Of a stretch of 62,581 nucleotides of DNA, positions 28-14,312 are shown piece by piece (position 1 is the first letter of the stretch; the number at the start of each line of letters is the position of its first letter). A model generated the notes under the pieces. That model ran no database searches, had not been told where the DNA came from, and was given only the letters and a program-made list of their open reading frames with translations. The DNA is from Bacteroidales bacterium Bact_09 (GTDB lineage: Bacteria; Bacteroidota; Bacteroidia; Bacteroidales; UBA932). Position numbers and translations under genes: made by a program. Where the stretch lies: contig LUZA01000015.1 of assembly GCA_001603455.1 (NCBI GenBank), positions 1-62,581 on the forward strand, read 5' to 3'.

Positions 28-35
28 TACCTTTG
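28..35 (+). promoter_or_regulatory. -7 promoter box for the histidine kinase gene
   Basis: The octamer TACCTTTG fits the Bacteroidetes -7 consensus TAnnTTTG. It ends three bases before the ATG at 39, so the transcript would be nearly leaderless. A -33 TTTG is not clear because the window begins here; only a T-run is seen at 4-10. A TTG at 33 is in frame but lies inside the box, which argues for the ATG at 39 as start. Confidence 0.4.
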
Positions 36-38
36 AAT

Positions 39-1037
39 ATGATACTAAAACCCCGCCGGTATCAGTACTTACTGATCTTTTTGACAGTCTTTCTGCTTCT
101 GTTCCTGGGGGCCATGCGTGTAGATCCCTGGATATCGCTGGTGATGGCATTTCTGGATACATGCTGGATGATTTTGATGATGTTCGGACTGGAGAGATAT
201 CTGGACAAAGTCAATAATAAAGGAATGCCGCGGCTATTGGTCATGTTGACCACGCTGTTGATCATGGTGGTATTTGTGATCACACTCATGGTGACTGAAA
301 ATTTCATACTTCGGACGATGTTAGATGAAGATTTCAAACGGCCCCTTCTGGTATACCCCTTGTTCAAAAATACCATGCTTGCCATGGGTGCATTTCTGGG
401 AGCCACGGGCATAAGATCCCGTAAGATCAGGACGCAGGCAGAAAAACTGATGCAGGAAAAACAGGATATGGAGCTGGCTTTGCTCAAAAGCCGCATGGAT
501 CCGCATTTTGTCTTCAATGCCCTGAATGTCCTGTATTCCCTCAGTTATACGCATAACGAAAAAACGCCCGAAATGATCATGAAGCTGGCAGAAATGTTGC
601 GCTATATAACCGACGAATGCCAGGCAGACAAAGTTCCTGTTGGAGAAGAAGTGAAATATATTGAGAATTATCTGGATTTTCAGCAGATCCGTTTTGGGAA
701 GCCAAGGAATCTGTCGTTTGTACATACCCTGGATGATTCCGGATGCATGATCCCTCCCATGATCCTCCTGCCTTTTGTAGAAAACAGTTTCAAGCACGGG
801 GATATCACCAACGATCCGCAGGGAATGATAGAGATCTTCTTAAAATTGGAAAACAAACATCTCTCTTTTACTGTAAAAAATACCCACGGCACCACAATTC
901 AAGAATCTTCAGAAAGGGACGGGGTGGGAATCACCAATGTGGAAAGGAGACTGACCCTGTATTACCCGGGGAAACACACTCTGGAGATGCGGCCTGAAGG
1001 AAAGGTATATAGGGTTAACCTGAAGATTGAACTATGA
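39..1037 (+). CDS. LytS/YehU-type sensor histidine kinase
   Basis: This is an inner-membrane sensor kinase of the LytS/YehU class (His_kinase domain plus HATPase), 332 aa from the ATG at 39. About four hydrophobic membrane segments occupy residues 8-125 and there is no periplasmic sensor domain. A short coiled linker leads to the phospho-acceptor motif DPHFVFNALN (His about 156). An ATP-binding N-box PFVENSFKHG follows near 247 and a GVGITNVERRL G-box near 300. Its stop overlaps the start of the response regulator by four bases (ATGA), so the two are translationally coupled and should work as a pair. The stimulus is unknown. The minus-strand hydrolase operon converges on this pair, but nothing in the sequence proves it is the target. 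Confidence 0.93.
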   Translation: MILKPRRYQYLLIFLTVFLLLFLGAMRVDPWISLVMAFLDTCWMILMMFGLERYLDKVNNKGMPRLLVMLTTLLIMVVFVITLMVTENFILRTMLDEDFKRPLLVYPLFKNTMLAMGAFLGATGIRSRKIRTQAEKLMQEKQDMELALLKSRMDPHFVFNALNVLYSLSYTHNEKTPEMIMKLAEMLRYITDECQADKVPVGEEVKYIENYLDFQQIRFGKPRNLSFVHTLDDSGCMIPPMILLPFVENSFKHGDITNDPQGMIEIFLKLENKHLSFTVKNTHGTTIQESSERDGVGITNVERRLTLYYPGKHTLEMRPEGKVYRVNLKIEL

Positions 1038-1753
1038 AAGATATCCGTTACCGTGTATTAATCCTGGATGATGAAGCACCAGCCAGAAAGCTTTTGGAAG
1101 AATATATATCGCACATGCCAGACCTGGTCATTGCAGGGAGTTTCAACAATGCCTCACATGCCAGATCTTACCTGAATAAAAACCCTGTTGACATACTGTT
1201 GTGTGACATCCAAATGCCCGGTATCAGCGGCCTTGACCTGGTTCGTAGCCTGAATTCCCCTGTATGTGTGATCTTTACTACGGCACATTCCCGGTTTGCT
1301 GTTGAAGGATTTGAACTTGATGTTGTGGACTACCTGTTAAAACCTATATCCCTTGAGAGGTTTCGCAAAGCCATAGACAAAGCCATAGGGATATGCCGGC
1401 GAAGACAGCCTGATCCTGGGCACATCCTGGTGAGGGCAGATTACAAGGTGCACAGGATAGACCTGAGTGACCTTGTGTATATGGAATCACAACACGAATA
1501 CATTACATATCATACAATCAATGAAAAGATTACCGCTTACGGTTCACTCAAAGCCCTGGAAAAGAACCTTCCGGGCGAACGTTTTGTCCGGATACATAAA
1601 TCCTTCATTATATCCCTGGATAAGATCCGCAGTGCAGACCGTAGTAAGGTCGTTTTACTATATCACGGGCAGATCAGCCTGCCGATTGGCCGTGTTTACC
1701 GGGACCGGCTCAATGTTTTATATACCCATCCGGCTGCGGGAAGGGAATACTGA
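1034..1753 (+). CDS. LytTR-family response regulator
   Basis: DNA-binding response regulator, 239 aa, cytoplasmic. The N-terminal receiver domain (about 5-120) has the acidic pair DD near residues 12-13, the phospho-acceptor Asp58 in LLCDIQMPG, and the conserved Lys in LLKPIS. The C-terminal LytTR domain (about 140-235) is recognised from its motifs YMESQHEYITYHT and RFVRIHKSFIISLDKI, typical of AlgR/AgrA/LytR regulators. It is the cognate partner of the kinase immediately upstream. LytTR proteins bind imperfect direct repeats near promoters; I did not identify such a site here. The gene ends 26 bases from the convergent hydrolase D gene. Confidence 0.93.
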   Translation: MKDIRYRVLILDDEAPARKLLEEYISHMPDLVIAGSFNNASHARSYLNKNPVDILLCDIQMPGISGLDLVRSLNSPVCVIFTTAHSRFAVEGFELDVVDYLLKPISLERFRKAIDKAIGICRRRQPDPGHILVRADYKVHRIDLSDLVYMESQHEYITYHTINEKITAYGSLKALEKNLPGERFVRIHKSFIISLDKIRSADRSKVVLLYHGQISLPIGRVYRDRLNVLYTHPAAGREY

Positions 1754-1779
1754 GTTTTTTCAGGAAGAACAGGTTTGGA

Positions 1780-2919
1780 TTAAAAACGTGTCCAGAAGGC
1801 CATGCGCTTCATGATCAGGTGAATTCCCATGCGAAGGAAATACCATTTCCCGAATTCGTAATGACCACCTTTTCCGTAACGGATGCGAACGGGGGCCCCA
1901 CGTTTCCGGAATTGTTCGTAAGCATATGTGGCGACACGGGTAGGTACGGAAAGATCGTCCGAGGCATGTGAGAATATAATTTTTGTTTTTGGCGTCCATC
2001 CGTCAACCAGGGAATTTTTCCTGAATTTATCCCAAAGTTTTTTAATTTCCTGGTTTCTATCCGCCGTGAAAAAATCCGGGTGCATATATTTATACAGGTC
2101 CTGACCTATCCACTCTGTAAGCTGATCCCTGTAATGTGTCCTGTCCAGCCAACTGTGCATATTCTCCAGTAAAGGTCCCCGGAACACCTTTGAATAGTCC
2201 AGGTTCAGGTCATACCATATATCGTACGCCTTGAAAATCCCGGGAGCTGCAGGATACTGGGCAAAGCCTGTCTTCGCAAATTCTTCAAAAGCGATGTTCA
2301 GATCGTAAATACCGCCTCCGATGATCGCCCTGTCAATAATAATATCTGAAGGATTTTCTTTTTCAATGTGCCGTATTAATGCCAGAGCTCCGGATCCGCC
2401 CATGGAGTAGCCGCCAACGGAAATATGTTTCTGCAAACGGTGACCCAGGATTGCCAGGAAGTATTCCATGGCAGCCCTATGCATGTCGTATGCTACGCGT
2501 CCTGTATTATCAGCCATCAGGAAAGGATACTCCACCGTGTCTTTTGTTACGCCGTTCCCCAGGAGGTCGGGTATGATCACAATATATCCCAGGAAAGCCA
2601 GCGCACCCTCAAAAATGAGTAGTGCATCGCTTCCCGAGCCGAATTTGTCGATATTAGCCGATGGAAGGAAATGCAGCACACCCCTTGGCTTTCTGTTGAT
2701 GGGCCTGATTATGATCCCGGAGGACACAACAGGAGTCCCTTTGGGGTCCACCGTATTGTAGGATATGGCGGTAATGCGTACCCTCATCTTGAAAAGGGCT
2801 TCCAAAACAGGTTTTATGCGGGTAAGGTTCAACGCCGGAAAATCTTTTTTAACTTCCACAAAAACCTCCCTTATGGAAAAATCTCCTTCTTTGAGAATGT
2901 CTAAAAAATAATGGGGCAT
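1780..2919 (-). CDS. Alpha/beta-hydrolase paralogue D, without signal peptide
   Basis: About 379 aa hydrolase with the same fold as the three lipoproteins upstream. It has an N-terminal ISYNTVDPKGTPV segment resembling secretory-lipase-like proteins, a nucleophile elbow GGYSMGGSG (Ser about 172), an acid SHASDDLSVP (about 325) and a His in KGGHYEFGKW. Unlike paralogues A-C it has no signal peptide or lipobox. Its first residues align with the part of paralogue C just after the lipobox (FS..E...DFP.L.LT). The start is the ATG at 2919; a TTG at 2925 would overlap the stop of C. It is the last gene of the operon. Substrate is unknown: esterase, lipase or peptidase activity are all possible. Without a signal it should be cytoplasmic unless exported with a partner. 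Confidence 0.82.
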   Translation of the reverse strand: MPHYFLDILKEGDFSIREVFVEVKKDFPALNLTRIKPVLEALFKMRVRITAISYNTVDPKGTPVVSSGIIIRPINRKPRGVLHFLPSANIDKFGSGSDALLIFEGALAFLGYIVIIPDLLGNGVTKDTVEYPFLMADNTGRVAYDMHRAAMEYFLAILGHRLQKHISVGGYSMGGSGALALIRHIEKENPSDIIIDRAIIGGGIYDLNIAFEEFAKTGFAQYPAAPGIFKAYDIWYDLNLDYSKVFRGPLLENMHSWLDRTHYRDQLTEWIGQDLYKYMHPDFFTADRNQEIKKLWDKFRKNSLVDGWTPKTKIIFSHASDDLSVPTRVATYAYEQFRKRGAPVRIRYGKGGHYEFGKWYFLRMGIHLIMKRMAFWTRF

Positions 2920-2921
2920 GA

Positions 2922-4115
2922 TCAATTAATTGTTAAATACAGGCATGCGCTGATAAAAAAATGTATACCATAGTCATAGTGTCCACCGGTTCCCCGGATC
3001 AGGGACACATGAAACTTTGACTTAAGCATGTTGTACAAAGCCTGCGTTTCTAAAAAAGGAACTGAAAGATCATCTATGGCATGACCCAGGAAGATGTGTG
3101 TATTTGTATTCCAGTCCTTGAAAAATGTATGTGAAGATAATGCATTCTCAATTTTGATGATTTCAGCATTCCTTTCTGGTGTGAAAAAATCGGGGTGCAT
3201 GTAAGTATCCAGATGGGGATCTATGAGTTCCCTCATCTGTTGGGCATTCCTTGTACCATCCAGCCAGTCATCCATGTTTTCCAGCAGGGAACCCGTAAAT
3301 ACTTTTGAATAATCCAGATCCAGATCGTGCCAGTAATCCAGAGATGCTATGAGCAGCGGAGCCAGTGGATATTCTGCATAACGGCGTTCTTTCAAAACCT
3401 GAAAAGTCGATTGCATATCATATACTCCTCCTCCGGCAAAAAGATTTGTCACTTTGACAGGAGATGAAGCCAGACAGTCTATATAACGAAGCAAGGCAAC
3501 GGCGCCGGTGGCACCACCCGAATAACCGACAATATTCATATGGGAGGGCAACCTTTCCTGGGTATAACGTTCAAAATACTCCATTGCCGCCATATGCATG
3601 TCGTAGCATACCCTGCCGGTATTGTCCATGAAAAGAAAAGGCTGCGGGAGGTCAGCGCTGATTCCGCTCCCGATCAGATCAGGAATAATTACCGTAAAGC
3701 CGAGGAATGCGAAAACCCCTTCGGTGATGATCAGCAGGTCACTGCCTCCCTCCAGGCTGGAGAGGGGTGTTGTCGGAGGAACGTGTATCACTCCTCTTGA
3801 AGCCATCCCCAATGGCTGAACAATTATACCCGAGGCAAGCACGGGGTTGCCCTTTGGATTAACCGTATGATATGAGATAGCAGTCACCTTAACCCGCATA
3901 TCCAAGTGGAACAGGTCGGTGACAGATTTCAGCATGGTCAGATCCAGTTCCGGAAAATCCCTTATGGTAAGTTCGATCATTTCATACATGCTGAATTCCT
4001 GTGAACGCAGCACAGATTCCAGATAACCTTCTGGTTGCACGGCAATCTGATCCATTTTGTTACACGAGACAAGTATCAGCAGCAGAAAGGTTGCCATAAA
4101 ACCTTTATGTCTCAT
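2922..4115 (-). CDS. Alpha/beta-hydrolase lipoprotein, paralogue C
   Basis: A 397 aa predicted lipoprotein hydrolase. The signal peptide ends in the lipobox LVSC (Cys18). The catalytic triad candidates are Ser199 in VGYSGGATG, Asp in GHAIDDLSVP and His in GTGGHYDYG. The segment ISYHTVNPKGNPVLASGI is shared with the other three paralogues and resembles the secretory-lipase-like branch of alpha/beta hydrolases. It starts five bases after the fourth micropeptide gene and its stop lies next to the start of paralogue D, so it belongs to the same transcript. C and D are closer to each other than to A and B: both have the DDLSVP and GGHY(D/E)(Y/F)G motifs. Substrate is not predictable from sequence. 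Confidence 0.85.
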   Translation of the reverse strand: MRHKGFMATFLLLILVSCNKMDQIAVQPEGYLESVLRSQEFSMYEMIELTIRDFPELDLTMLKSVTDLFHLDMRVKVTAISYHTVNPKGNPVLASGIIVQPLGMASRGVIHVPPTTPLSSLEGGSDLLIITEGVFAFLGFTVIIPDLIGSGISADLPQPFLFMDNTGRVCYDMHMAAMEYFERYTQERLPSHMNIVGYSGGATGAVALLRYIDCLASSPVKVTNLFAGGGVYDMQSTFQVLKERRYAEYPLAPLLIASLDYWHDLDLDYSKVFTGSLLENMDDWLDGTRNAQQMRELIDPHLDTYMHPDFFTPERNAEIIKIENALSSHTFFKDWNTNTHIFLGHAIDDLSVPFLETQALYNMLKSKFHVSLIRGTGGHYDYGIHFFISACLYLTIN

Positions 4116-4120
4116 ATACG

Positions 4121-4201
4121 TCAGAATGATCCCAGAAAAATGAAAGCCAGCAGGGACATCAAAGATCCCAGAATAATTAGTATTTTTGATATTAGATCCA
4201 T
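4121..4201 (-). CDS. Micropeptide Y2, 26 aa, one membrane helix
   Basis: An open frame of 26 codons plus stop starting at ATG 4201 and ending in TGA. The product begins MDLISKI and ends LLAFIFLGSF; nearly all of it is a single hydrophobic helix with one Lys near the N-terminus. It matches the micropeptide at 4330-4410 at 14 of 26 positions with no gaps, including the shared block LLAFIFLG. It lies 19 bases after the previous micropeptide and five bases before hydrolase C, all on one strand. The paralogy and tight spacing support a real gene; expression is not proven. Confidence 0.72.
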   Translation of the reverse strand: MDLISKILIILGSLMSLLAFIFLGSF

Positions 4202-4220
4202 TTCTGCAATATTTAAACAG

Positions 4221-4313
4221 TTATCTCCATGCCAGGATGATCAGACATATCATCATGATCAGCGGTCCGGCGATACCTGCAATCTTAATGATCAGATTCC
4301 AGTTGATGTTCAT
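4221..4313 (-). CDS. Micropeptide X2, 30 aa, one membrane helix
   Basis: An open frame of 30 codons plus stop from ATG 4313, ending in TAA. The product starts MNINWNLIIKI, continues IAGPLIMMI and ends LAWR: one hydrophobic helix with a C-terminal Arg. It resembles the larger micropeptide at 4430-4567: in an ungapped alignment anchored on the GPL triplet the I, K, I, GPL, I, L and W positions agree. It is preceded by an A/T-rich leader, normal for Bacteroidetes starts. It sits 16 bases after Y1 and 19 bases before Y2. Confidence 0.7.
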   Translation of the reverse strand: MNINWNLIIKIAGIAGPLIMMICLIILAWR

Positions 4314-4329
4314 AGTGAATTATTTTAAT

Positions 4330-4410
4330 TTATAATACGCCTAAAAAGATAAATGCCAGGAGGGTGATAAATAAACCGAGCATAGCGGTTATTTTCAAAA
4401 AATCGTCCAT
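4330..4410 (-). CDS. Micropeptide Y1, 26 aa, one membrane helix
   Basis: An open frame of 26 codons plus stop from ATG 4410, ending in TAA. The product starts MDDFLKI, contains LLAFIFLG and ends VL. It is a paralogue of the equally long micropeptide at 4121-4201 (14 of 26 identical, no gap). The N-terminus is acidic (DD) followed by a Lys and then an unbroken hydrophobic helix, suggesting insertion in the inner membrane. No function is known; size and hydrophobicity recall both small accessory subunits and type I toxin peptides. Confidence 0.72.
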   Translation of the reverse strand: MDDFLKITAMLGLFITLLAFIFLGVL

Positions 4411-4429
4411 AACTGTTGCTTTTAAGTGG

Positions 4430-4567
4430 TTAAAGGATCAGTCCTACAATATAGGAAATCAGTTCAAATCCCCATCCGAGCCATAAGTTGCCTATCAGGC
4501 ACATGAGTGGTCCCAGGATAGCGAACACTTTCCATATCCAGTGAGGGTCAGTTGTTAAGGTAGTCAT
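4430..4567 (-). CDS. Micropeptide X1, 45 aa, one or two membrane segments
   Basis: An open frame of 45 codons plus stop from ATG 4567, eight bases after the stop of hydrolase B. The N-terminus MTTLTTDPHW is polar. It is followed by a hydrophobic stretch with ILGPLMCLIGNLWLGWG and a second short one, ELISYIVGLIL. Tryptophan-rich, no signal cleavage site. Its first helix resembles micropeptide X2 (common GPL and W positions). It is the first of four micropeptides between hydrolase pairs AB and CD. I do not recognise the family. Confidence 0.7.
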   Translation of the reverse strand: MTTLTTDPHWIWKVFAILGPLMCLIGNLWLGWGFELISYIVGLIL

Positions 4568-4575
4568 AATGCTTA

Positions 4576-5850
4576 TTATTTAGCTAATAAATAAAAAACT
4601 GCGGTTGCTATAAATTTAAATCCTGCTTGAAAATGATCTCCGGTAGTACGATCGTAAGAGATGGCACAACCTCTCTTTCTGTATTCATTGTAAAGCAGGT
4701 CGGCACATTCTACCGGGATCAGGTTATCCTGGGCTGAGTGTATCAGATGGATCTCCAGCATCGGCTTGGGAGTCCAGTTGTAAACTATTGAATTAACCTC
4801 AAGAGGCTCTTTTAGTTTCAGGAACTCCCCGTCTAATTGGGGATTGAAAAAATCCTGATGCATATAACGGTGCAGATCGCTTCCCCACCGCTGAATAATG
4901 CTCGAGAGGGTGCGTTCTCCGCTGAACCACCAGGCGTATCCGTCGCCACCTTCTTCAGGATCCGGTGAATTCACCGGGTTTTCCATGCCGTTTGCAAAAA
5001 TTTTGGTATAATCCAAGTCGAGGTTGTAATACTTGTCGAACCCGATGATAACCATAGGGATAGACTGATAATCATTCCGGCCGGTCCTGACATAAGCCCT
5101 GAAAGCTTCTATGCCGTCATAAACACCTCCTCCCGTATAGACCCTGTCCACGGTGATTCCAGTGGGATTTTCCTCGTAATACCAGGCCATTGCCATGGAT
5201 GTACTTCCCCCCAGCGAGTAGCCCATGATGATACTCCTGTTATCAAGCTGGTAATTTTCGGTAATCAGGAGGTATTCTTCTACTGCTTTACGCATATGGT
5301 ATGCTACAACGCCGGCATTATTCACGATCAGGTACGGTCTGGGCCATTCCTCTGTATAGCGTACTCCTAAAAAATCGGGATTTATAGTAATGTAACCCAG
5401 CATGCAGGGGACGCTTTCAAATGAGAATTCCCTGCGTTCCACATAAAGAGAAGGGGCTTCGTCATTGTGCATCAGGGCAATAGGCGGAATCTCCACGACA
5501 CCTCCGGGCTTCAGATCCCGTGGATAAAAGAATGCTCCGGTAGCTGTCACAGGCTCTCCAAAAGGATCGGTCGTCCTGTAAGAAAGAGACACACCCCGGA
5601 TCTGGCGGTGCAGCCCCTTATTAAACAATTTCATCAGCCATTGATGCGTTTCTTCCGAAAATTCAAAATCAAACCCTTTTGCCAGTCCCAGAATGGATTC
5701 CATGGCGAAATTTGCCGTAAAGTCCCATACAGCCAGCTCTTCAATGAAGTACCGGGGAGTAAATTCCTCAATGTCATCATGTGGTGTACAACCCCACCAT
5801 GTAATGACAGACAGGAGGAGGGCAGTTACGTATAGATTCCTTTTATTCAT
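4576..5850 (-). CDS. Alpha/beta-hydrolase lipoprotein, paralogue B
   Basis: A 424 aa predicted lipoprotein. The start is ATG 5850, which overlaps the stop of paralogue A as ATGA and is followed by a signal peptide ending in WWGC (lipobox). An upstream in-frame ATG at 5940 lies inside A and would bury the signal peptide. Catalytic candidates are Ser in MGYSLGGST, Asp in SAQDNLIPV and His in TGDHFQAG. It shares with A the long segments LSYRTTDPFG, GAFFYPRDLKP, YHMRKAVEEYLLITENY and a loop with EEGGDGYAWWF not found in C or D. Predicted surface or periplasmic lipid-anchored hydrolase. Substrate unknown. Confidence 0.87.
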   Translation of the reverse strand: MNKRNLYVTALLLSVITWWGCTPHDDIEEFTPRYFIEELAVWDFTANFAMESILGLAKGFDFEFSEETHQWLMKLFNKGLHRQIRGVSLSYRTTDPFGEPVTATGAFFYPRDLKPGGVVEIPPIALMHNDEAPSLYVERREFSFESVPCMLGYITINPDFLGVRYTEEWPRPYLIVNNAGVVAYHMRKAVEEYLLITENYQLDNRSIIMGYSLGGSTSMAMAWYYEENPTGITVDRVYTGGGVYDGIEAFRAYVRTGRNDYQSIPMVIIGFDKYYNLDLDYTKIFANGMENPVNSPDPEEGGDGYAWWFSGERTLSSIIQRWGSDLHRYMHQDFFNPQLDGEFLKLKEPLEVNSIVYNWTPKPMLEIHLIHSAQDNLIPVECADLLYNEYRKRGCAISYDRTTGDHFQAGFKFIATAVFYLLAK

Positions 5851-7106
5851 CTCATCAGCAGGTAAAGCATGGCGGTCATCATGAACTCGGTTCCTGCCTC
5901 GTAATGGTTCCCGGTAGTACGGATATATTGAATGGCACAACCTTTTTCTTTATAAACCTTGTACAAAAGGTCTGCGCAGTCAACAGGAATCAGGTTGTCT
6001 TCGCTGCTGTGGATCATGCGAATGTTCAGCAGTGGATCGGGGGTCCAGTTGTAAACCAGAGAGTTGATATGCATGCATTCCTGTAATTTGAGGAACTCTC
6101 CGTGCGGTTCCTGATGGAAGAAGTCCTCATGCATATAATTGCGCAGATCACTGCCCCAGCGCCTGTGTATACTTCCCGAGCTGTGGGTGCCGTCAAACCA
6201 ATAGGCATATCCGTCACCTCCTTCTGCGGGGTTGGGTGAATTTACGGAATTTTCCATGCCGTTTGCAAAAATTTTGCTATAGTCCAGATTCAGTTCATAA
6301 AAAGTGTCCATGGCAATGATGACACTCGGAATGGCCAGATAGTCACTTTTTTCGGTGCGGGCATATGCTCTAAAGGCTTCCAAGCCATCATACACGCCGC
6401 CTCCGGTAAATACCTGATCTATCTTAATGCCGGTCTGATTTTCAGTGTAATATTTAGCAATCGACATCGCAGATGCACCCCCCAGGGAATAACCGAATAC
6501 AGAACTCCGGTTCCCCAGCCTGTAATTTTCGGTTATAAGCAGATACTCCTCAACGGCTTTACGCATATGGTATGCGACCAGACCGGAATTGGCATCGTGC
6601 AGGAACGGCCGCGGCATTTCCTGTGTGTAAAGCACTCCCAAAAGATCGGTATTGATGGTAATGTAATTAAGCATACAGGGAAAAGCCTCCTCAAAGAAAC
6701 GTTTTCTGCCAACATATATGGCAGCGCTTGCCCCCCGGTCAAGATGGGCTATAGGCGGGATTTCGACAATGCCCTTGGGCTTAAGGTCGCGGGGATAGAA
6801 AAAGGCGCCGGTCGCAAGCACCGGATTCCCAAAAGGATCAAAAGTCCTGTAAGAAAGGGCGACACCTCGGATTTCCTTATTTAAGTAGCCTTCAATAAAG
6901 CCCAACACTTTGCTGACCATGGGATCTGATTGATCAATTTCCAGTTCTTTCAGCAGGGCGTCCACCGCATCTCTGATGGTAAAATCCCAAACGTTCAGTT
7001 CCTCGACAAAATATTCCGGTACAATATCCCCCACGGCATCGTGCGGGGTGCACCCGGTCCAAAACAATGCTAAGATAAGAGCGGTAAGAGTTGTTAAGCG
7101 TTTCAT
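5847..7106 (-). CDS. Alpha/beta-hydrolase lipoprotein, paralogue A
   Basis: A 419 aa predicted lipoprotein hydrolase with a signal peptide and lipobox WTGC (Cys19). The nucleophile is Ser207 in FGYSLGGAS, with Asp in SSEDNLIPV and His in TGNHYEAG. The N-terminal mature part (about 78-115) has the LSYRTFDPFGNPV and FFYPRDLKP motifs that resemble secretory-lipase-like alpha/beta hydrolases. It follows the M28 peptidase gene by 19 bases and is coupled to paralogue B by a four-base overlap. A and B look like a tandem duplication. Substrate unknown: a lipid ester, acylated peptide or glycan ester are all compatible. Confidence 0.87.
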   Translation of the reverse strand: MKRLTTLTALILALFWTGCTPHDAVGDIVPEYFVEELNVWDFTIRDAVDALLKELEIDQSDPMVSKVLGFIEGYLNKEIRGVALSYRTFDPFGNPVLATGAFFYPRDLKPKGIVEIPPIAHLDRGASAAIYVGRKRFFEEAFPCMLNYITINTDLLGVLYTQEMPRPFLHDANSGLVAYHMRKAVEEYLLITENYRLGNRSSVFGYSLGGASAMSIAKYYTENQTGIKIDQVFTGGGVYDGLEAFRAYARTEKSDYLAIPSVIIAMDTFYELNLDYSKIFANGMENSVNSPNPAEGGDGYAYWFDGTHSSGSIHRRWGSDLRNYMHEDFFHQEPHGEFLKLQECMHINSLVYNWTPDPLLNIRMIHSSEDNLIPVDCADLLYKVYKEKGCAIQYIRTTGNHYEAGTEFMMTAMLYLLMR

Positions 7107-7125
7107 TATTATGAGTTTATAAAAA

Positions 7126-8568
7126 TCAATTCCAAATCCAGTCTCCCAAGATCACAAGTTCTTCCTGCAACTGATTGTCAATAAGGTATTGACGCAGTTG
7201 CTCATCGTTCAGACGCGTTGCCGGCAGGACAGGCGAATTGGCCAGCGCATAGATCATTTTTGCCGATGTCCTGACATTGCTGTTGATCATTTCCGGGGTA
7301 ATGTATTGTGGTGTGTCTGCGCTTGTATGGTATGTGTGGTATGTTTCATAACGGCATAAAGGGGTGAAGGTGGAAATTCCCTCCATCAGGAACGGAGCAT
7401 GGTCGCTGCCAAGGTACGTAAAATGGGCAATAACATTGGTGAAAAACGAATCGGTCCGGCCTATGATCATGCCGGTTTCCCTTATCAGATCCTCTGATTC
7501 ATAGCGGCCCATCAGATTGAATCCGTAAGTGCTGACTGTCATATCGTGATTGAACATATAACGGATCCCGTCCAGCCGGTTCCTGTGCCTGGCTTCCCTT
7601 ACATACAGCTCCGAACCGTAATGGCCCTGTTCTTCGGCCATGAACAGTACAAAGTCTATGGATCTGCGTGTTTTAAGGTTAAGGGCTTTGAAGGTTCTGG
7701 CTATGTCCAGTACAGAAACAGCGCCTGATGCGTTGTCGAGAGCTCCCGGGGAAATATCCCAGGAATCCAGATGAGCGCCAACAACAATGGTCTCTTGGGG
7801 AAACTCATATCCTTCCAGTCGTGCCACAATATTTCGGGCATGAGCCGGAATGCAGGAATTTTCAGTAAATAGCCTGGCCGTGCATTTACGCTTGGCAAGG
7901 CAATTCCTGAGTGCCGCTCCCCGTTCATACGAGATGCTCACCGCCGGAATCTTGATCATTCCTCCGTCAAGGGTGGCCGAGCCCGTAGTGGGCAGATCAC
8001 CTGGGATGGGATTGACAGCAATGCACCCTATTGCACCTTGGGCGATGGCCAGCGATACTTTTTGGGCACGGTGCGTATTGCGCACATGGGGAGGTGTATC
8101 AGGGAGCAATCCAAGATGGATCAGAACGATTTTCCCGGTAACGTCAATGCCTGTATAATCATTGGGCAGCCCGTTCCCTGCATCCACAATGGGTGCACTT
8201 ACATTCCCGGAAGGAGTGTAAGCCAATGCCAGTGCCGGGAAATCGGTAAATGTACCGGCCGTATCAATACGTAGCCGGGCTGTGCCCCGTTGCCACTGGT
8301 TAAAGGTGAAAGGCTGGAAGAATACGCTATCGTATCCATAGGAACGGAACAACAGGGCCGCCAATTCTTCTGCGCATGCAGCAGCCTCTGTTCCTGCCAT
8401 CCGGGGACCGTAACGGTCACAGATATCCAGCAACAATGGATATGCCTGGGAGTTGTTGCTGACTTCCAGATCAATGCTTTTGAAAACAATATGAAGATGC
8501 AGGCGCGGATTGTCGCAGCCCACAAGCAATGAAAGTAATAAAATACCTGACAGGCACCTCCACTTCAT
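7126..8568 (-). CDS. M28-family zinc aminopeptidase lipoprotein
   Basis: A 480 aa lipoprotein with lipobox LVGC (Cys18). The mature protein has a PA-domain-like insertion (about 120-230, VDAGNGLPNDYTG... GKIVLIHLG) and a C-terminal M28 metallopeptidase domain. The zinc ligands are visible: His and Asp in GAHLDSWD and GALDNASGA, Glu-Glu in MAEEQGHYGS, and His in GSDHAPFLMEG. It should release N-terminal residues from peptides outside the inner membrane. It is the first gene of the minus-strand operon that continues with the hydrolases and micropeptides. It shares a 38-base divergent promoter region with comF. Confidence 0.9.
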   Translation of the reverse strand: MKWRCLSGILLLSLLVGCDNPRLHLHIVFKSIDLEVSNNSQAYPLLLDICDRYGPRMAGTEAAACAEELAALLFRSYGYDSVFFQPFTFNQWQRGTARLRIDTAGTFTDFPALALAYTPSGNVSAPIVDAGNGLPNDYTGIDVTGKIVLIHLGLLPDTPPHVRNTHRAQKVSLAIAQGAIGCIAVNPIPGDLPTTGSATLDGGMIKIPAVSISYERGAALRNCLAKRKCTARLFTENSCIPAHARNIVARLEGYEFPQETIVVGAHLDSWDISPGALDNASGAVSVLDIARTFKALNLKTRRSIDFVLFMAEEQGHYGSELYVREARHRNRLDGIRYMFNHDMTVSTYGFNLMGRYESEDLIRETGMIIGRTDSFFTNVIAHFTYLGSDHAPFLMEGISTFTPLCRYETYHTYHTSADTPQYITPEMINSNVRTSAKMIYALANSPVLPATRLNDEQLRQYLIDNQLQEELVILGDWIWN

Positions 8569-8573
8569 GTCAA

Positions 8574-8581
8574 CAAATATA
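8574..8581 (-). promoter_or_regulatory. -7 box for the M28/hydrolase/micropeptide operon
   Basis: On the minus strand the sequence reads TATATTTG, an exact TAnnTTTG match, five bases from the M28 start codon. It lies only 11 bases from the oppositely directed comF box, so the two polymerase footprints must overlap. The -33 element is only partly matched (TTT). Confidence 0.5.
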
Positions 8582-8592
8582 GCAATATTTCA

Positions 8593-8600
8593 TAACTTTG
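8593..8600 (+). promoter_or_regulatory. -7 box for comF
   Basis: TAACTTTG, a perfect Bacteroidetes -7 box, six bases upstream of the ATG at 8607. The alternative TTG start at 8598 would be inside this box, so it was rejected. Confidence 0.5.
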
Positions 8601-8606
8601 AAAGCT

Positions 8607-9281
8607 ATGCGGAGTATCCTTACGGATATGTGTTTTCCCAGGTGCTGCGGGGTATGCGGGAAGGTTCTTGTCCCTCAGGAAGATGTGTTGTGCCTGCCTT
8701 GTCTTCACGATCTTCCCAGAACTTACCAGTGGCTGGTTCCGGACAACCCTCTGGCCGGAACGTTTAAAGGAAGAATACCTTTTGACAGAGCTTCTTCTTT
8801 TCTTTTTTTCAGGGAGGCAAGTCCATACCGTAAATTACTGCATCTTTTCAAATATGGCGGTGAGCTTCGCATTGGTCTTTATATGGGATCTCTTTTCGGG
8901 AAAGAGCTGGTCAGGACTTGGGGTCTCTCTGCCGCTCCCATAATCATTCCTGTCCCCATGTCTTCATTCAAACGAAAGAAAAGAGGTTATAATCAGGCGG
9001 AATGGCTGGCGGCAGGCATAGCCATGGCTGCCGGATGGCCGTTGGACACATCGGCAGTTGACAGGATAAGGGAAAGAACCAGCCAGACCGTATATGACAG
9101 GGAAAAACGCAGGGAAAATATCAAGAACGCCTTTGTAGCACGGTCAGTCCCTTACAGCGAGGTTTTGCTTGTGGATGATGTAGTCACGACAGGGGCCACA
9201 ATGGAAAGCTGTGCTCTTGCCATACTGGACAGGAATCCTGCAATCCGGCTCAGTCTGGCGTCGCTGGCTTATGTTGAATAA
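8607..9281 (+). CDS. comF: ComF family phosphoribosyltransferase-like protein
   Basis: About 224 aa from ATG 8607, a usual length for the ComF/GntX family. The N-terminus carries a zinc-ribbon-like set of cysteines (CCGVCGKVLV...CLPCL) and the C-terminus has the PRPP-binding loop VLLVDDVVTTGATM. The motif KRKKRGYNQAEWLA is the family signature. In transformable bacteria ComF assists DNA uptake across the inner membrane; in Bacteroidetes its role is not established. First gene of a plus-strand run with cdaA and mutS2. Confidence 0.9.
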   Translation: MRSILTDMCFPRCCGVCGKVLVPQEDVLCLPCLHDLPRTYQWLVPDNPLAGTFKGRIPFDRASSFLFFREASPYRKLLHLFKYGGELRIGLYMGSLFGKELVRTWGLSAAPIIIPVPMSSFKRKKRGYNQAEWLAAGIAMAAGWPLDTSAVDRIRERTSQTVYDREKRRENIKNAFVARSVPYSEVLLVDDVVTTGATMESCALAILDRNPAIRLSLASLAYVE

Positions 9282-9286
9282 AAACG

Positions 9287-9294
9287 TATATTTG
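9287..9294 (+). promoter_or_regulatory. -7 box for cdaA
   Basis: TATATTTG just downstream of the comF stop and six bases before the ATG at 9301. This supports separate transcription of cdaA and that ATG as the true start, rather than an upstream in-frame start inside comF. Confidence 0.5.
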
Positions 9295-9300
9295 CATACT

Positions 9301-10086
9301 ATGCCTGACTTTTTGCGCTTAGATATCCTTGATATCATAGACATTGTCCTTGTAGGGCTGCTGATCTACCAAGTGTATAAGATCATACGGGGCACTGCCG
9401 CGGTAAATATTTTTTTTGGAATCCTTTTCGTTTATTTCATATGGCTGGTTGTCAAGGCACTTCATATGGAGTTACTGACAACTATTTTGGACAAAGTGAT
9501 CAGTGTGGGCGTTCTGGCCCTGATTGTGGTTTTTCAACAGGAGATCAGACGTTTTCTCCTGCAACTTGGATCCCGGTATACCAAAGAAGGCAGACGGCGC
9601 GGATTGTTGGAAACCTTGTTCAACCCCGGACAGGAAACCATATCCAAGAGTGAAATCGAAGAGATCATCCATGCCTGCAGCAGGATGTCCGAGCGTAAAA
9701 CCGGGGCACTGATTGCCGTAGAGCGGTTTGCATCGCTCGGATTCATTACCGAGACAGGTGACCGGATAGATGCCCGGGTTCACAGGCGCCTGATAGAGAA
9801 TGTCTTTTTCAGGAATAGCCCCCTGCATGACGGAGGTATAGTCATATCCAACGGCCGTATCCAGGCGGCGCGATGTACTTTTCCCATGTCTGAAAGCCAG
9901 GGAATTCCGCCATATTTTGGCATGAGACACCGTGCTGGTGTGGGGTTGAGCGAACAAACGGACGCCTTTGTCATAGTCATATCCGAAGAAACAGGGGCTA
10001 TTTCCACCATGCAGGATGGAGTAATAAAAACACTGAGCGGTGTGGCCGAATTGCGCCTTGATCTGGAGAACGCTTTTCATAAGTAA
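9301..10086 (+). CDS. cdaA: Diadenylate cyclase (c-di-AMP synthase), CdaA type
   Basis: A 261 aa membrane-bound enzyme making cyclic di-AMP from two ATP. Three predicted membrane helices (about 10-78) precede the DisA_N catalytic domain (about 95-250). The RHR motif is at 209-211 (MRHRAG) and SEETGAIS follows. The first catalytic motif, normally DGA, reads DGG here (residues 177-179, PLHDGGIVIS), a conservative but notable change. It is next to mutS2. Start chosen at 9301 from the promoter and the membrane helix position. Confidence 0.92.
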   Translation: MPDFLRLDILDIIDIVLVGLLIYQVYKIIRGTAAVNIFFGILFVYFIWLVVKALHMELLTTILDKVISVGVLALIVVFQQEIRRFLLQLGSRYTKEGRRRGLLETLFNPGQETISKSEIEEIIHACSRMSERKTGALIAVERFASLGFITETGDRIDARVHRRLIENVFFRNSPLHDGGIVISNGRIQAARCTFPMSESQGIPPYFGMRHRAGVGLSEQTDAFVIVISEETGAISTMQDGVIKTLSGVAELRLDLENAFHK

Positions 10087-12619: not shown

Positions 12620-13006
12620 ATGAAAAAGACATTTTTAGTCATGTCATGCCTGATGGCGTTGGGATCGTGCAGTCGGGAACGGGAACCGCTGGACATTGCC
12701 GAGGCATTCCTGCAATCTTTTTTTGCGGCTGATTATCAGACGGCACGGACATATGCGGCACCTGAACTTTACCACATTCTGGAAAAATCCCAAGCCATAA
12801 TGGACTCTCTTTCCGAAGAAGAAAACGAATTGGTAAAAAAGTACCTGTCTCCCGTCAAGATCACGGTAGATAATCCCGGAAAAGTGCAGGGAGATACACT
12901 CCGGTTGTCTTACCGGGTAGAATTTTCCAATTTGCCTGAACCGGGCATTTCAGTGATCGTACTGCGAAAGGAACGCAGAAAATGGCATGTTTTTGCTTTA
13001 GAATAA
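12620..13006 (+). CDS. Small lipoprotein, DUF4878-like
   Basis: A 128 aa predicted lipoprotein with lipobox LGSC (Cys17). The mature part begins with an [20 protein letters not shown] helix pair and ends in a beta-rich segment with [16 protein letters not shown]. This layout resembles the NTF2-like DUF4878 lipoproteins of Bacteroidales. Function unknown. It follows mutS2 by 11 bases and its last nine bases overlap the 3' end of the convergent metK gene. Confidence 0.8.
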
Positions 13007-14209
13007 CCTGGATCTGAGGATATCTGTGTAATCGAGTTTTTCCCAGGAAAAATACGCTATGCCGTCTTTTCTAAAAGGATCACGGCCAAAATGGCCGTAA
13101 TTGGAAGTTGCCCTGTATATCGGATTTTTGAGCTGGAATTCTTCTATGATCCGGGCAGGACGCAAATCAAATACCTGGGATATGATCCTTGCCATTTCGG
13201 CATCAGTCTTTCTGGTGTGGGAAGTACCAAAGGTGTTCACATTCACGCTTACGGGCCGGGCTACCCCAATGGCATAGGCAAGCTGTATCAGGACTTCTTC
13301 GGCAGCTCCTGCTGCTACCAGGTTTTTGGCTATGTGGCGGGCGGCATAGCAGGCAGAACGGTCCACCTTGCTGGGATCTTTTCCCGAAAAAGCGCCACCA
13401 CCGTGCGCCCCGCGACCGCCGTACGTATCGACTATGATCTTACGTCCTGTCAGGCCGGTATCTCCGTGAGGGCCTCCTATGACAAATTTGCCTGTTGGAT
13501 TGACCAGCAATTGCATATCGTGGTCAAAGAGGTGCTTGCGGGAAGGATGAACTTTTTCTATCAGGCGCGGTAACAGGATATTGCGTACATCTTCTGTGAT
13601 CTGCTGGTGCATCAGGTGATCTTTAGCAAACGGATCATGCTGTGTGGATAAAACCAGCGTGTCTATACGTTGTGCTTTTTTATTTTCGTCGTATTCAACG
13701 GTGAACTGGCATTTTGAATCAGGCCGCAGATAAGTCATCTGTTTCCCTTCCTTGCGGATAGCGGCCAGTTCCATAAGTGTAATGTGTGCCAGGACTATGG
13801 GCAGCGGCATAAGCTCTTCCGTTTCGTTACAAGCGTATCCGAACATCATTCCCTGGTCTCCGGCACCCTGGTCATCTGGATTCTCTTTTACAACACCCTG
13901 GTATATGTCTGGAGATTGCTCATGTATGATGGAAATAACACCGCAGGATTCAGCTTCGAATTTGTACTCGGCGCGGGTGTACCCGATATCGGCTATCACT
14001 TTGCGTGCGATTTGCTGTATATCCACCCAGGCATTGGAGCGCACTTCTCCCCCAATGATCACAAGACCGGTAGATACAAATACTTCGCAGGCAACTTTGG
14101 ATTCCGGGTCAAGACGCAGGAATTCGTCTAATATGGCATCGGCAATCTGATCGGCTATTTTATCCGGATGTCCTTCAGATACAGATTCAGAAGAAAAGAG
14201 TGTTTTCAT
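12998..14209 (-). CDS. metK: S-adenosylmethionine synthetase
   Basis: A 403 aa cytoplasmic enzyme making SAM from methionine and ATP. It has the N-terminal [23 protein letters not shown], the [12 protein letters not shown] methionine/ATP loop and the [16 protein letters not shown] signature. The start is ATG 14209 (MKTLFSSES); the in-frame ATG 18 codons upstream adds residues absent from the family. It converges with the small lipoprotein gene, sharing nine bases at the 3' end. No SAM riboswitch was recognised in the 284 bases upstream. Confidence 0.97.
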
Positions 14210-14312
14210 TTTAGCATTTTTAGAGTGGTTGCAAGCAGGCAAATTTGTCCACAAGTATGTCAATTGGGTGACAAAGGTAAAAAAACTTTTAACAGAGCAA
14301 ATTTTAATTATA

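What the first reader, a model, noticed from the sequence alone, without database searches (positions are those of the whole stretch)
4121..4567. Four tandem micropeptide genes of two paralogous families in X-Y-X-Y order
Between two pairs of hydrolase genes lie four small open frames of 45, 26, 30 and 26 codons on the same strand, spaced 16-19 bases apart. All encode hydrophobic membrane helices. The two 26-mers match at 14 of 26 positions without gaps (common block LLAFIFLG). The 45-mer and 30-mer share I, K, GPL, I, L and W positions. The alternating order implies duplication of an X-Y gene pair. Genes this short are normally not annotated. Possible roles: small membrane subunits that anchor or regulate the hydrolases, or a toxin-like peptide family. 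The membrane-helix and paralogy observations come from the sequence; function is inference.
Basis: partly seen in the sequence, partly recalled or inferred. Interest (0 to 1): 0.88.

Follow-up and report, generated by a model that had tools for sequence, protein, structure and literature searches.

The report
Tandem membrane micropeptides in an esterase operon
Four tiny, hitherto unnamed genes, each encoding a single membrane-spanning helix of 26-45 amino acids and all apparently descended from one ancestor, sit inside an operon of surface esterases in one genus of uncultured Bacteroidales and have been kept by selection in every species examined; what they do is not known.

Summary
Four in-frame ORFs (X1 45 aa, Y1 26, X2 30, Y2 26) lie on the minus strand between two pairs of LipA-like alpha/beta hydrolases. 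All 13 held genomes of the genus keep these genes, with near-constant lengths and 13-22 nt spacing (exceptions: a frameshifted Y1, one split into two X-Y pairs, one extra Y2). Selection is purifying (dN/dS about 0.10-0.32; independent-pair P from 8e-4 to 1e-14), so they are real genes. They sit in an apparent nine-gene operon with one conserved promoter box. The X1 profile finds no convincing relative in 237 other family, 392 order or 395 phylum genomes sampled. A second genus with its own hydrolase array carries an unrelated-looking but mutually paralogous coding pair (P, Q) in 4 of 4 genomes, on the opposite strand; 100 control loci gave no such pairs. New, lineage-restricted small membrane protein families with unusual tandem architecture.

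The parts
4430..4567 (-). X1 micropeptide gene, 45 aa, MTTLTTDPHWIWKVFAILGPLMCLIGNLWLGWGFELISYIVGLIL
   Evidence: ORF; conserved in 13/13 genus genomes; pN/pS 0.19, P=1e-14 in independent pairs
4330..4410 (-). Y1 micropeptide gene, 26 aa, MDDFLKITAMLGLFITLLAFIFLGVL
   Evidence: ORF; conserved, frameshifted only in G007; pN/pS 0.44, P=8e-4
4221..4313 (-). X2 micropeptide gene, 30 aa, MNINWNLIIKIAGIAGPLIMMICLIILAWR
   Evidence: ORF; conserved; pN/pS 0.16, P=1e-14
4121..4201 (-). Y2 micropeptide gene, 26 aa, MDLISKILIILGSLMSLLAFIFLGSF
   Evidence: ORF; conserved, extra copy in G001; pN/pS 0.20, P=8e-11
4576..5850 (-). H2, lipoprotein alpha/beta hydrolase, 424 aa; ATG at 5850 overlaps the H1 stop by 4 nt
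   Evidence: Lipobox WWGC; S-D-H motifs GYSLG, HSAQDNLIP, GDHF; fold match 4ezi/LipA
5847..7106 (-). H1, lipoprotein alpha/beta hydrolase, 419 aa, 60% identical to H2
2922..4115 (-). H3, lipoprotein alpha/beta hydrolase, 397 aa
   Evidence: Pfam Abhydrolase_1 E 7e-4, below the curated cut-off; lipobox and triad motifs
1780..2919 (-). H4, alpha/beta hydrolase, 379 aa, no signal peptide
   Evidence: Pfam Abhydrolase_1 E 3e-5 and DLH E 6e-5; signal-less N-terminus in relatives too
7126..8568 (-). M28 metallopeptidase with PA domain, lipoprotein; first gene of the apparent operon
   Evidence: Pfam M28 E 8e-36, PA E 2e-11; lipobox
8574..8581 (-). TATATTTG, Bacteroidales-type -7 box 5 nt before the M28 ATG; the only TAnnTTTG on this strand from 1600 to 8900; same place in 8/8 M28-headed loci compared (window included)

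Best explanation
X1, Y1, X2 and Y2 are four genuine genes for single-helix membrane proteins that arose from one ancestral micropeptide: one duplication gave X and Y, then the X-Y pair was duplicated. They are probably co-transcribed with a set of LipA/CalA-like esterase lipoproteins (H1-H3), a signal-less paralogue (H4) and an M28 peptidase. Most likely (inferred) the peptides insert in the inner membrane, N-terminus in, pack with each other around the conserved G/GP core, and form a small hetero-oligomeric helix assembly that serves the hydrolase module as an accessory subunit: holding, sorting or modulating the lipoproteins, the signal-less H4, or a membrane partner that handles their products. 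Shown: genes, selection, paralogy (X1/X2, Y1/Y2 firm; X/Y probable), operon layout, genus restriction in the sample. Inferred: membrane insertion, oligomer, partner and effect.
For: Conserved ORFs in 13/13 genomes and purifying selection. The four remain in the hydrolase operon while neighbours change: H2 lost in G007, H3 replaced in G006/G009, H3 lost in G008. X1 is 71-93% identical to the window copy among same-length copies in relatives. Single promoter box at the operon head, gaps of at most 19 nt, 4-nt H1/H2 overlap. Four-way paralogy: hhalign E 1.6e-6 (X1-X2), 6.6e-5 (Y-X2), 2.1e-4 (X1-Y) against 0.0028-0.13 for comparisons with unrelated hydrophobic peptides; ungapped offsets 3, 4 and 7 add up. 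A sister genus with an independently expanded hydrolase array has its own tandem paralogous pair P-Q there. No such pairs at single-copy hydrolase loci or control loci. Hydrolase triad intact.
Against: No experiment, no physical interaction and no structural model of a complex. P-Q in the second genus is on the opposite strand, so it is not in the same transcript as the hydrolases, and it is not detectably homologous to X-Y. The peptides have almost no soluble part with which to bind a periplasmic or outer-membrane lipoprotein. A helix-face conservation pattern was tested and is not significant. X1's helix is only moderately hydrophobic. Co-transcription is inferred from spacing and promoter.
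Confidence: 0.45

Rival explanations
1. The four helices act together as a split multi-helix membrane protein, such as a small channel, transporter or exporter for hydrolase or peptidase products, encoded as four separate single-helix genes rather than one four-helix gene.
For: Four paralogous helices always kept in the cluster, with two distinct X and two distinct Y forms under selection; conserved Gly/GP core.
Against: Hardly any charged residue in the membrane span except near its ends; Y1 is frameshifted in G007 (perhaps a homopolymer error); the pairs are apart in G010; no matching family in Pfam, NCBIfam or PDB.
Confidence: 0.15
2. Hydrophobic toxin or membrane-depolarising stress peptides of the type I toxin kind, or a multi-peptide bacteriocin.
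Against: Embedded in an operon of enzymes under one promoter box; no Rfam antitoxin RNA in the region; no toxin family hit; no transporter or immunity gene in the operon; kept across the whole genus, none found on plasmids or viral contigs.
Confidence: 0.1
3. Peptide signals: the peptides are cut and released, and sensed by the LytTR-type two-component system encoded convergently next to H4.
For: A PF06580 histidine kinase and LytTR response regulator lie at 33-1753, and ORFs of matching size and position are next to the operon in G005, G007, G010, G011 and G012; the operon starts with a peptidase.
Against: In G003, G004, G006, G008 and G009 the downstream position holds another gene (a TolC-like protein in G003 and G006 by its sequence), yet X-Y persists; the kinase pair is not in the operon; LytTR systems are common in Bacteroidota (general knowledge); no cleavage or secretion signal seen.
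Confidence: 0.08
4. The ORFs are not functional proteins: leader ORFs, or the remains of a fragmented membrane protein.
For: Very short; Y1 evolves fastest and is frameshifted in one genome.
Against: Deficit of amino-acid changes in all four; conserved starts, stops and lengths; no fused form found in the sampled genomes.
Confidence: 0.02

Closest known systems
Operon-encoded single-helix accessory subunits such as CydX of cytochrome bd oxidase and partners such as AcrZ of AcrB (PMC6005532, PMC7267776)
   Same: Under 50 aa, one hydrophobic helix; CydX is encoded in the operon of its partner enzyme.
   Different: CydX partners an integral membrane enzyme and is a single gene; here four paralogues accompany lipoprotein esterases. 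No Pfam or NCBIfam match of X1 at E<=1.
Conserved small protein families of microbiomes (GMSC catalogue and the earlier human-microbiome survey it cites, PMC11364881)
   Same: Unannotated conserved small ORFs, often predicted transmembrane.
   Different: Those are catalogues; whether X or Y is listed there could not be checked. The X-Y-X-Y array and the link to an esterase array were not found in the papers searched.
LipA esterase of Xanthomonas oryzae (PDB 3h2g) and lpg1103 (4ezi), for the hydrolases only
   Same: Same fold: hmmsearch E 6e-19, Foldseek E 3.5e-18 to 1.5e-15; S-D-H motifs present.
   Different: Here in tandem arrays with lipoprotein signals and micropeptides; about 18% identity.
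Type I toxin peptides (TisB, Ibs, Fst kinds; from general knowledge)
   Same: Length and hydrophobicity.
   Different: No antisense RNA found, no isolated transcript, embedded in an enzyme operon.

Membership tests
Operon-encoded small membrane accessory subunits (functional class) | Short ORF under protein-level selection | tested here: met
   dN/dS 0.10-0.32, independent pairs P 8e-4 to 1e-14
Operon-encoded small membrane accessory subunits (functional class) | Single hydrophobic helix | tested here: met
   Hydropathy and AlphaFold2 of X1; prediction only
Operon-encoded small membrane accessory subunits (functional class) | Same transcription unit as the partner, stable across species | tested here: met
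   Gene order in 13/13 genomes, single promoter box; the transcript itself was not measured
Operon-encoded small membrane accessory subunits (functional class) | Physical and functional association with the partner | not testable with these tools
   needs pull-down and deletion
CydX (cytochrome bd small subunit) | Sequence match and linkage to cydAB | tested here: not met
   No Pfam or NCBIfam hit at E<=1 for X1; neighbours are hydrolases
Type I toxin-antitoxin peptide | Known toxin profile and antisense RNA antitoxin | tested here: not met
   No family hits; no Rfam RNA near the locus. Novel RNAs not excluded
Type I toxin-antitoxin peptide | Toxic on overexpression | not testable with these tools
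   needs expression experiment
LipA-like alpha/beta hydrolases (H1-H4) | Fold and catalytic S-D-H motifs | tested here: met

The most novel reading that the evidence does not exclude
Expanded arrays of LipA-like esterase lipoproteins repeatedly recruit tandem, self-duplicating single-helix micropeptides (X-Y-X-Y in one genus, the seemingly unrelated P-Q in another), which assemble into a multi-chain helix bundle that is a dedicated membrane partner of such arrays: a multi-helix membrane protein built from separately encoded paralogous helices.
Probability: 0.22. Interest if true: 0.8.

Novelty: new variant of a known kind. Interest (0 to 1): 0.55.

Why it matters
Small membrane proteins are abundant, but most lack a recognisable partner. 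Here four paralogues, with a traceable duplication history, strong selection and a fixed place in an operon, give a clear partner hypothesis, and a sister genus offers an independent parallel. It allows a direct test of how helices of 26-45 residues gain specificity, and it adds unannotated families to genomes of uncultured Bacteroidales.

Tried and rejected
Helical-face periodicity of conservation: not significant. Homology of P/Q to X/Y: not supported (E 0.0028-0.13). X/Y-like peptides at other hydrolase loci, searched with a combined core profile: only chance-level hits. Weak family hits (Form-deh_trans E 0.19, Mycoplasma lipoprotein E 0.018, a phage membrane family E 0.013) judged to be hydrophobic-composition noise. 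Solved structures for X1: none. Viral contigs and plasmids: none. X1 hits in other genera (E above 0.002) are at chance level and cover only part of the profile. Whether G010's H-X-Y-H'-X-Y order is ancestral could not be settled: H' is a long isolated branch.

Full report
Observation. The four ORFs exist exactly as described: 4430-4567 (X1), 4330-4410 (Y1), 4221-4313 (X2) and 4121-4201 (Y2), minus strand, ATG starts, spacers 19, 16 and 19 nt. Y1/Y2 share 14 of 26 residues and X1/X2 9 of 30. Two hydrolase genes lie on each side (H1 and H2 upstream, H3 and H4 downstream).

Are they genes? The window is contig C83 of a 1.93 Mb genome, of the order Bacteroidales judging by two public relatives. 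I took the clusters out and read the gaps. X1, Y1, X2 and Y2 stand in the same order with near-constant lengths and spacers mostly of 13-22 nt. Exceptions: G007 has a frameshifted Y1, at a T/A run (a sequencing error is possible); G010 keeps the X1-Y1 and X2-Y2 pairs apart with another lipoprotein hydrolase between them; G001 has an extra Y2 behind a duplicated H2; one of two G012 copies is cut by a contig end after Y1. Nei-Gojobori dN/dS is 0.13, 0.32, 0.10 and 0.16 for X1, Y1, X2 and Y2; in separate pairs of genomes the deficit of amino-acid changes has P = 1e-14, 8e-4, 1e-14 and 8e-11. These are protein-coding genes.

One family rather than two. Profile comparison gives X1-X2 E 1.6e-6, Y-X2 6.6e-5 and X1-Y 2.1e-4. 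The same test against the unrelated hydrophobic pair P/Q gives 0.0028-0.13, a useful control. Ungapped column-shuffle tests give z of 4.4-7.1 even when the hydrophobicity pattern is kept, and the best offsets (X1-X2 3, X2-Y 4, X1-Y 7) add up. They share a basic residue, mostly K, followed six positions later by a G that begins G(P/S/L). The X1-X2 and Y1-Y2 relations are firm; X-Y is probable. The most economical history is one peptide, then X+Y, then X-Y-X-Y before the genus diversified.

Distribution. The X1 profile finds all 13 genomes of the genus at E below 1e-22 and nothing convincing in 237 other genomes of the family, 392 of the order and 395 of the phylum, or in viral contigs and plasmids. 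Within the genus, Y matches above chance only in this cluster. No Pfam, NCBIfam, PHROG, PADLOC or PDB match above noise.

Operon. A TATATTTG box lies 5 nt before the M28 peptidase start and is the only TAnnTTTG on that strand across 1600-8900; it is at the same place in all eight M28-headed loci compared. Gaps between the nine genes are at most 19 nt and H1/H2 overlap by 4 nt. A single transcript is therefore likely, not shown. H1-H3 and the peptidase carry lipoboxes; H4 has no signal. The hydrolases keep S, D and H motifs and resemble LipA of Xanthomonas oryzae and lpg1103 of Legionella. Neighbouring hydrolases come and go (H2 lost in G007, H3 replaced in G006/G009 and lost in G008) while the micropeptides stay.

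A parallel case. In genus g19 of the same family, whose hydrolase array is a separate expansion (one clade in the tree), a gap of the array holds two tandem hydrophobic ORFs, P (35-37 aa) and Q (28-32 aa), in 4 of 4 genomes. They are coding (dN/dS 0.09 and 0.24), paralogous to each other (E 1.2e-6), found only in g19 and not demonstrably related to X/Y. Unlike X/Y they are on the strand opposite to the hydrolases; in L052 they converge on a PHP-type gene and diverge from the next hydrolase. A scan of 36 control loci, 35 other hydrolase loci and 29 single-copy hydrolase loci found no tandem hydrophobic pair. The link between hydrolase arrays and tandem micropeptides thus rests on two lineages; the g19 case was found by looking at such arrays, so it is suggestive rather than a blind test.

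How it works. Best reading: accessory single-helix subunits of a membrane-associated esterase module, forming hetero-oligomers. Steps shown: coding, conservation, paralogy, gene order. Steps inferred: membrane insertion and orientation, oligomer, partner, effect. Rivals are a split multi-helix channel or transporter, a toxin or bacteriocin, a peptide signal read by the adjacent LytTR two-component system, or non-functional ORFs; the last is essentially excluded. The neighbouring two-component genes are at matching places in about half of the genomes only, which speaks against a dedicated signal system.

Novelty. Single-helix operon-encoded small proteins such as CydX are a known kind (PMC6005532), and catalogues of microbial small proteins are large (PMC11364881). 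I found no report of a four-gene paralogous array of this kind, or of micropeptides tied to esterase arrays, in the papers searched, a limited library. I rate it a new variant of a known kind.

Noticed in passing
L051 4817-5034, L052 3449-3667, L053 3416-3647, L054 3076-3288 (genus g19): A second, apparently unrelated tandem micropeptide pair (P, Q) in an independently expanded array of the same hydrolase family, on the opposite strand.
   Followed up: yes
window 33-1753: PF06580 histidine kinase and LytTR response regulator, convergent with the hydrolase operon; ORFs of matching size and place in five other genus members, other genes in the rest.
   Followed up: partly
window 14201-14258, minus strand: SAM-II riboswitch (Rfam RF01726, 52 bits) at the head of the minus-strand ORF 12998-14263, with a Bacteroidales-type promoter match at 14272-14301.
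   Followed up: no
window 9211-10086: CdaA-type diadenylate cyclase (c-di-AMP) between a phosphoribosyltransferase-like gene and mutS2.
   Followed up: no
L043 (G007) 3487-3563: Y1 frameshifted at a T/A run in one genome; pseudogene or assembly error.
   Followed up: partly
L037 (G001) 6634-6714: Extra Y2 copy with the same peptide sequence behind a duplicated H2, as if a hydrolase-micropeptide block was duplicated and the other three small genes lost.
   Followed up: partly
L046 (G010) 4708-6048 (raw strand): A highly diverged lipoprotein hydrolase separates the X1-Y1 and X2-Y2 pairs; either an insertion or a relic of an H-X-Y-H-X-Y ancestor.
   Followed up: partly
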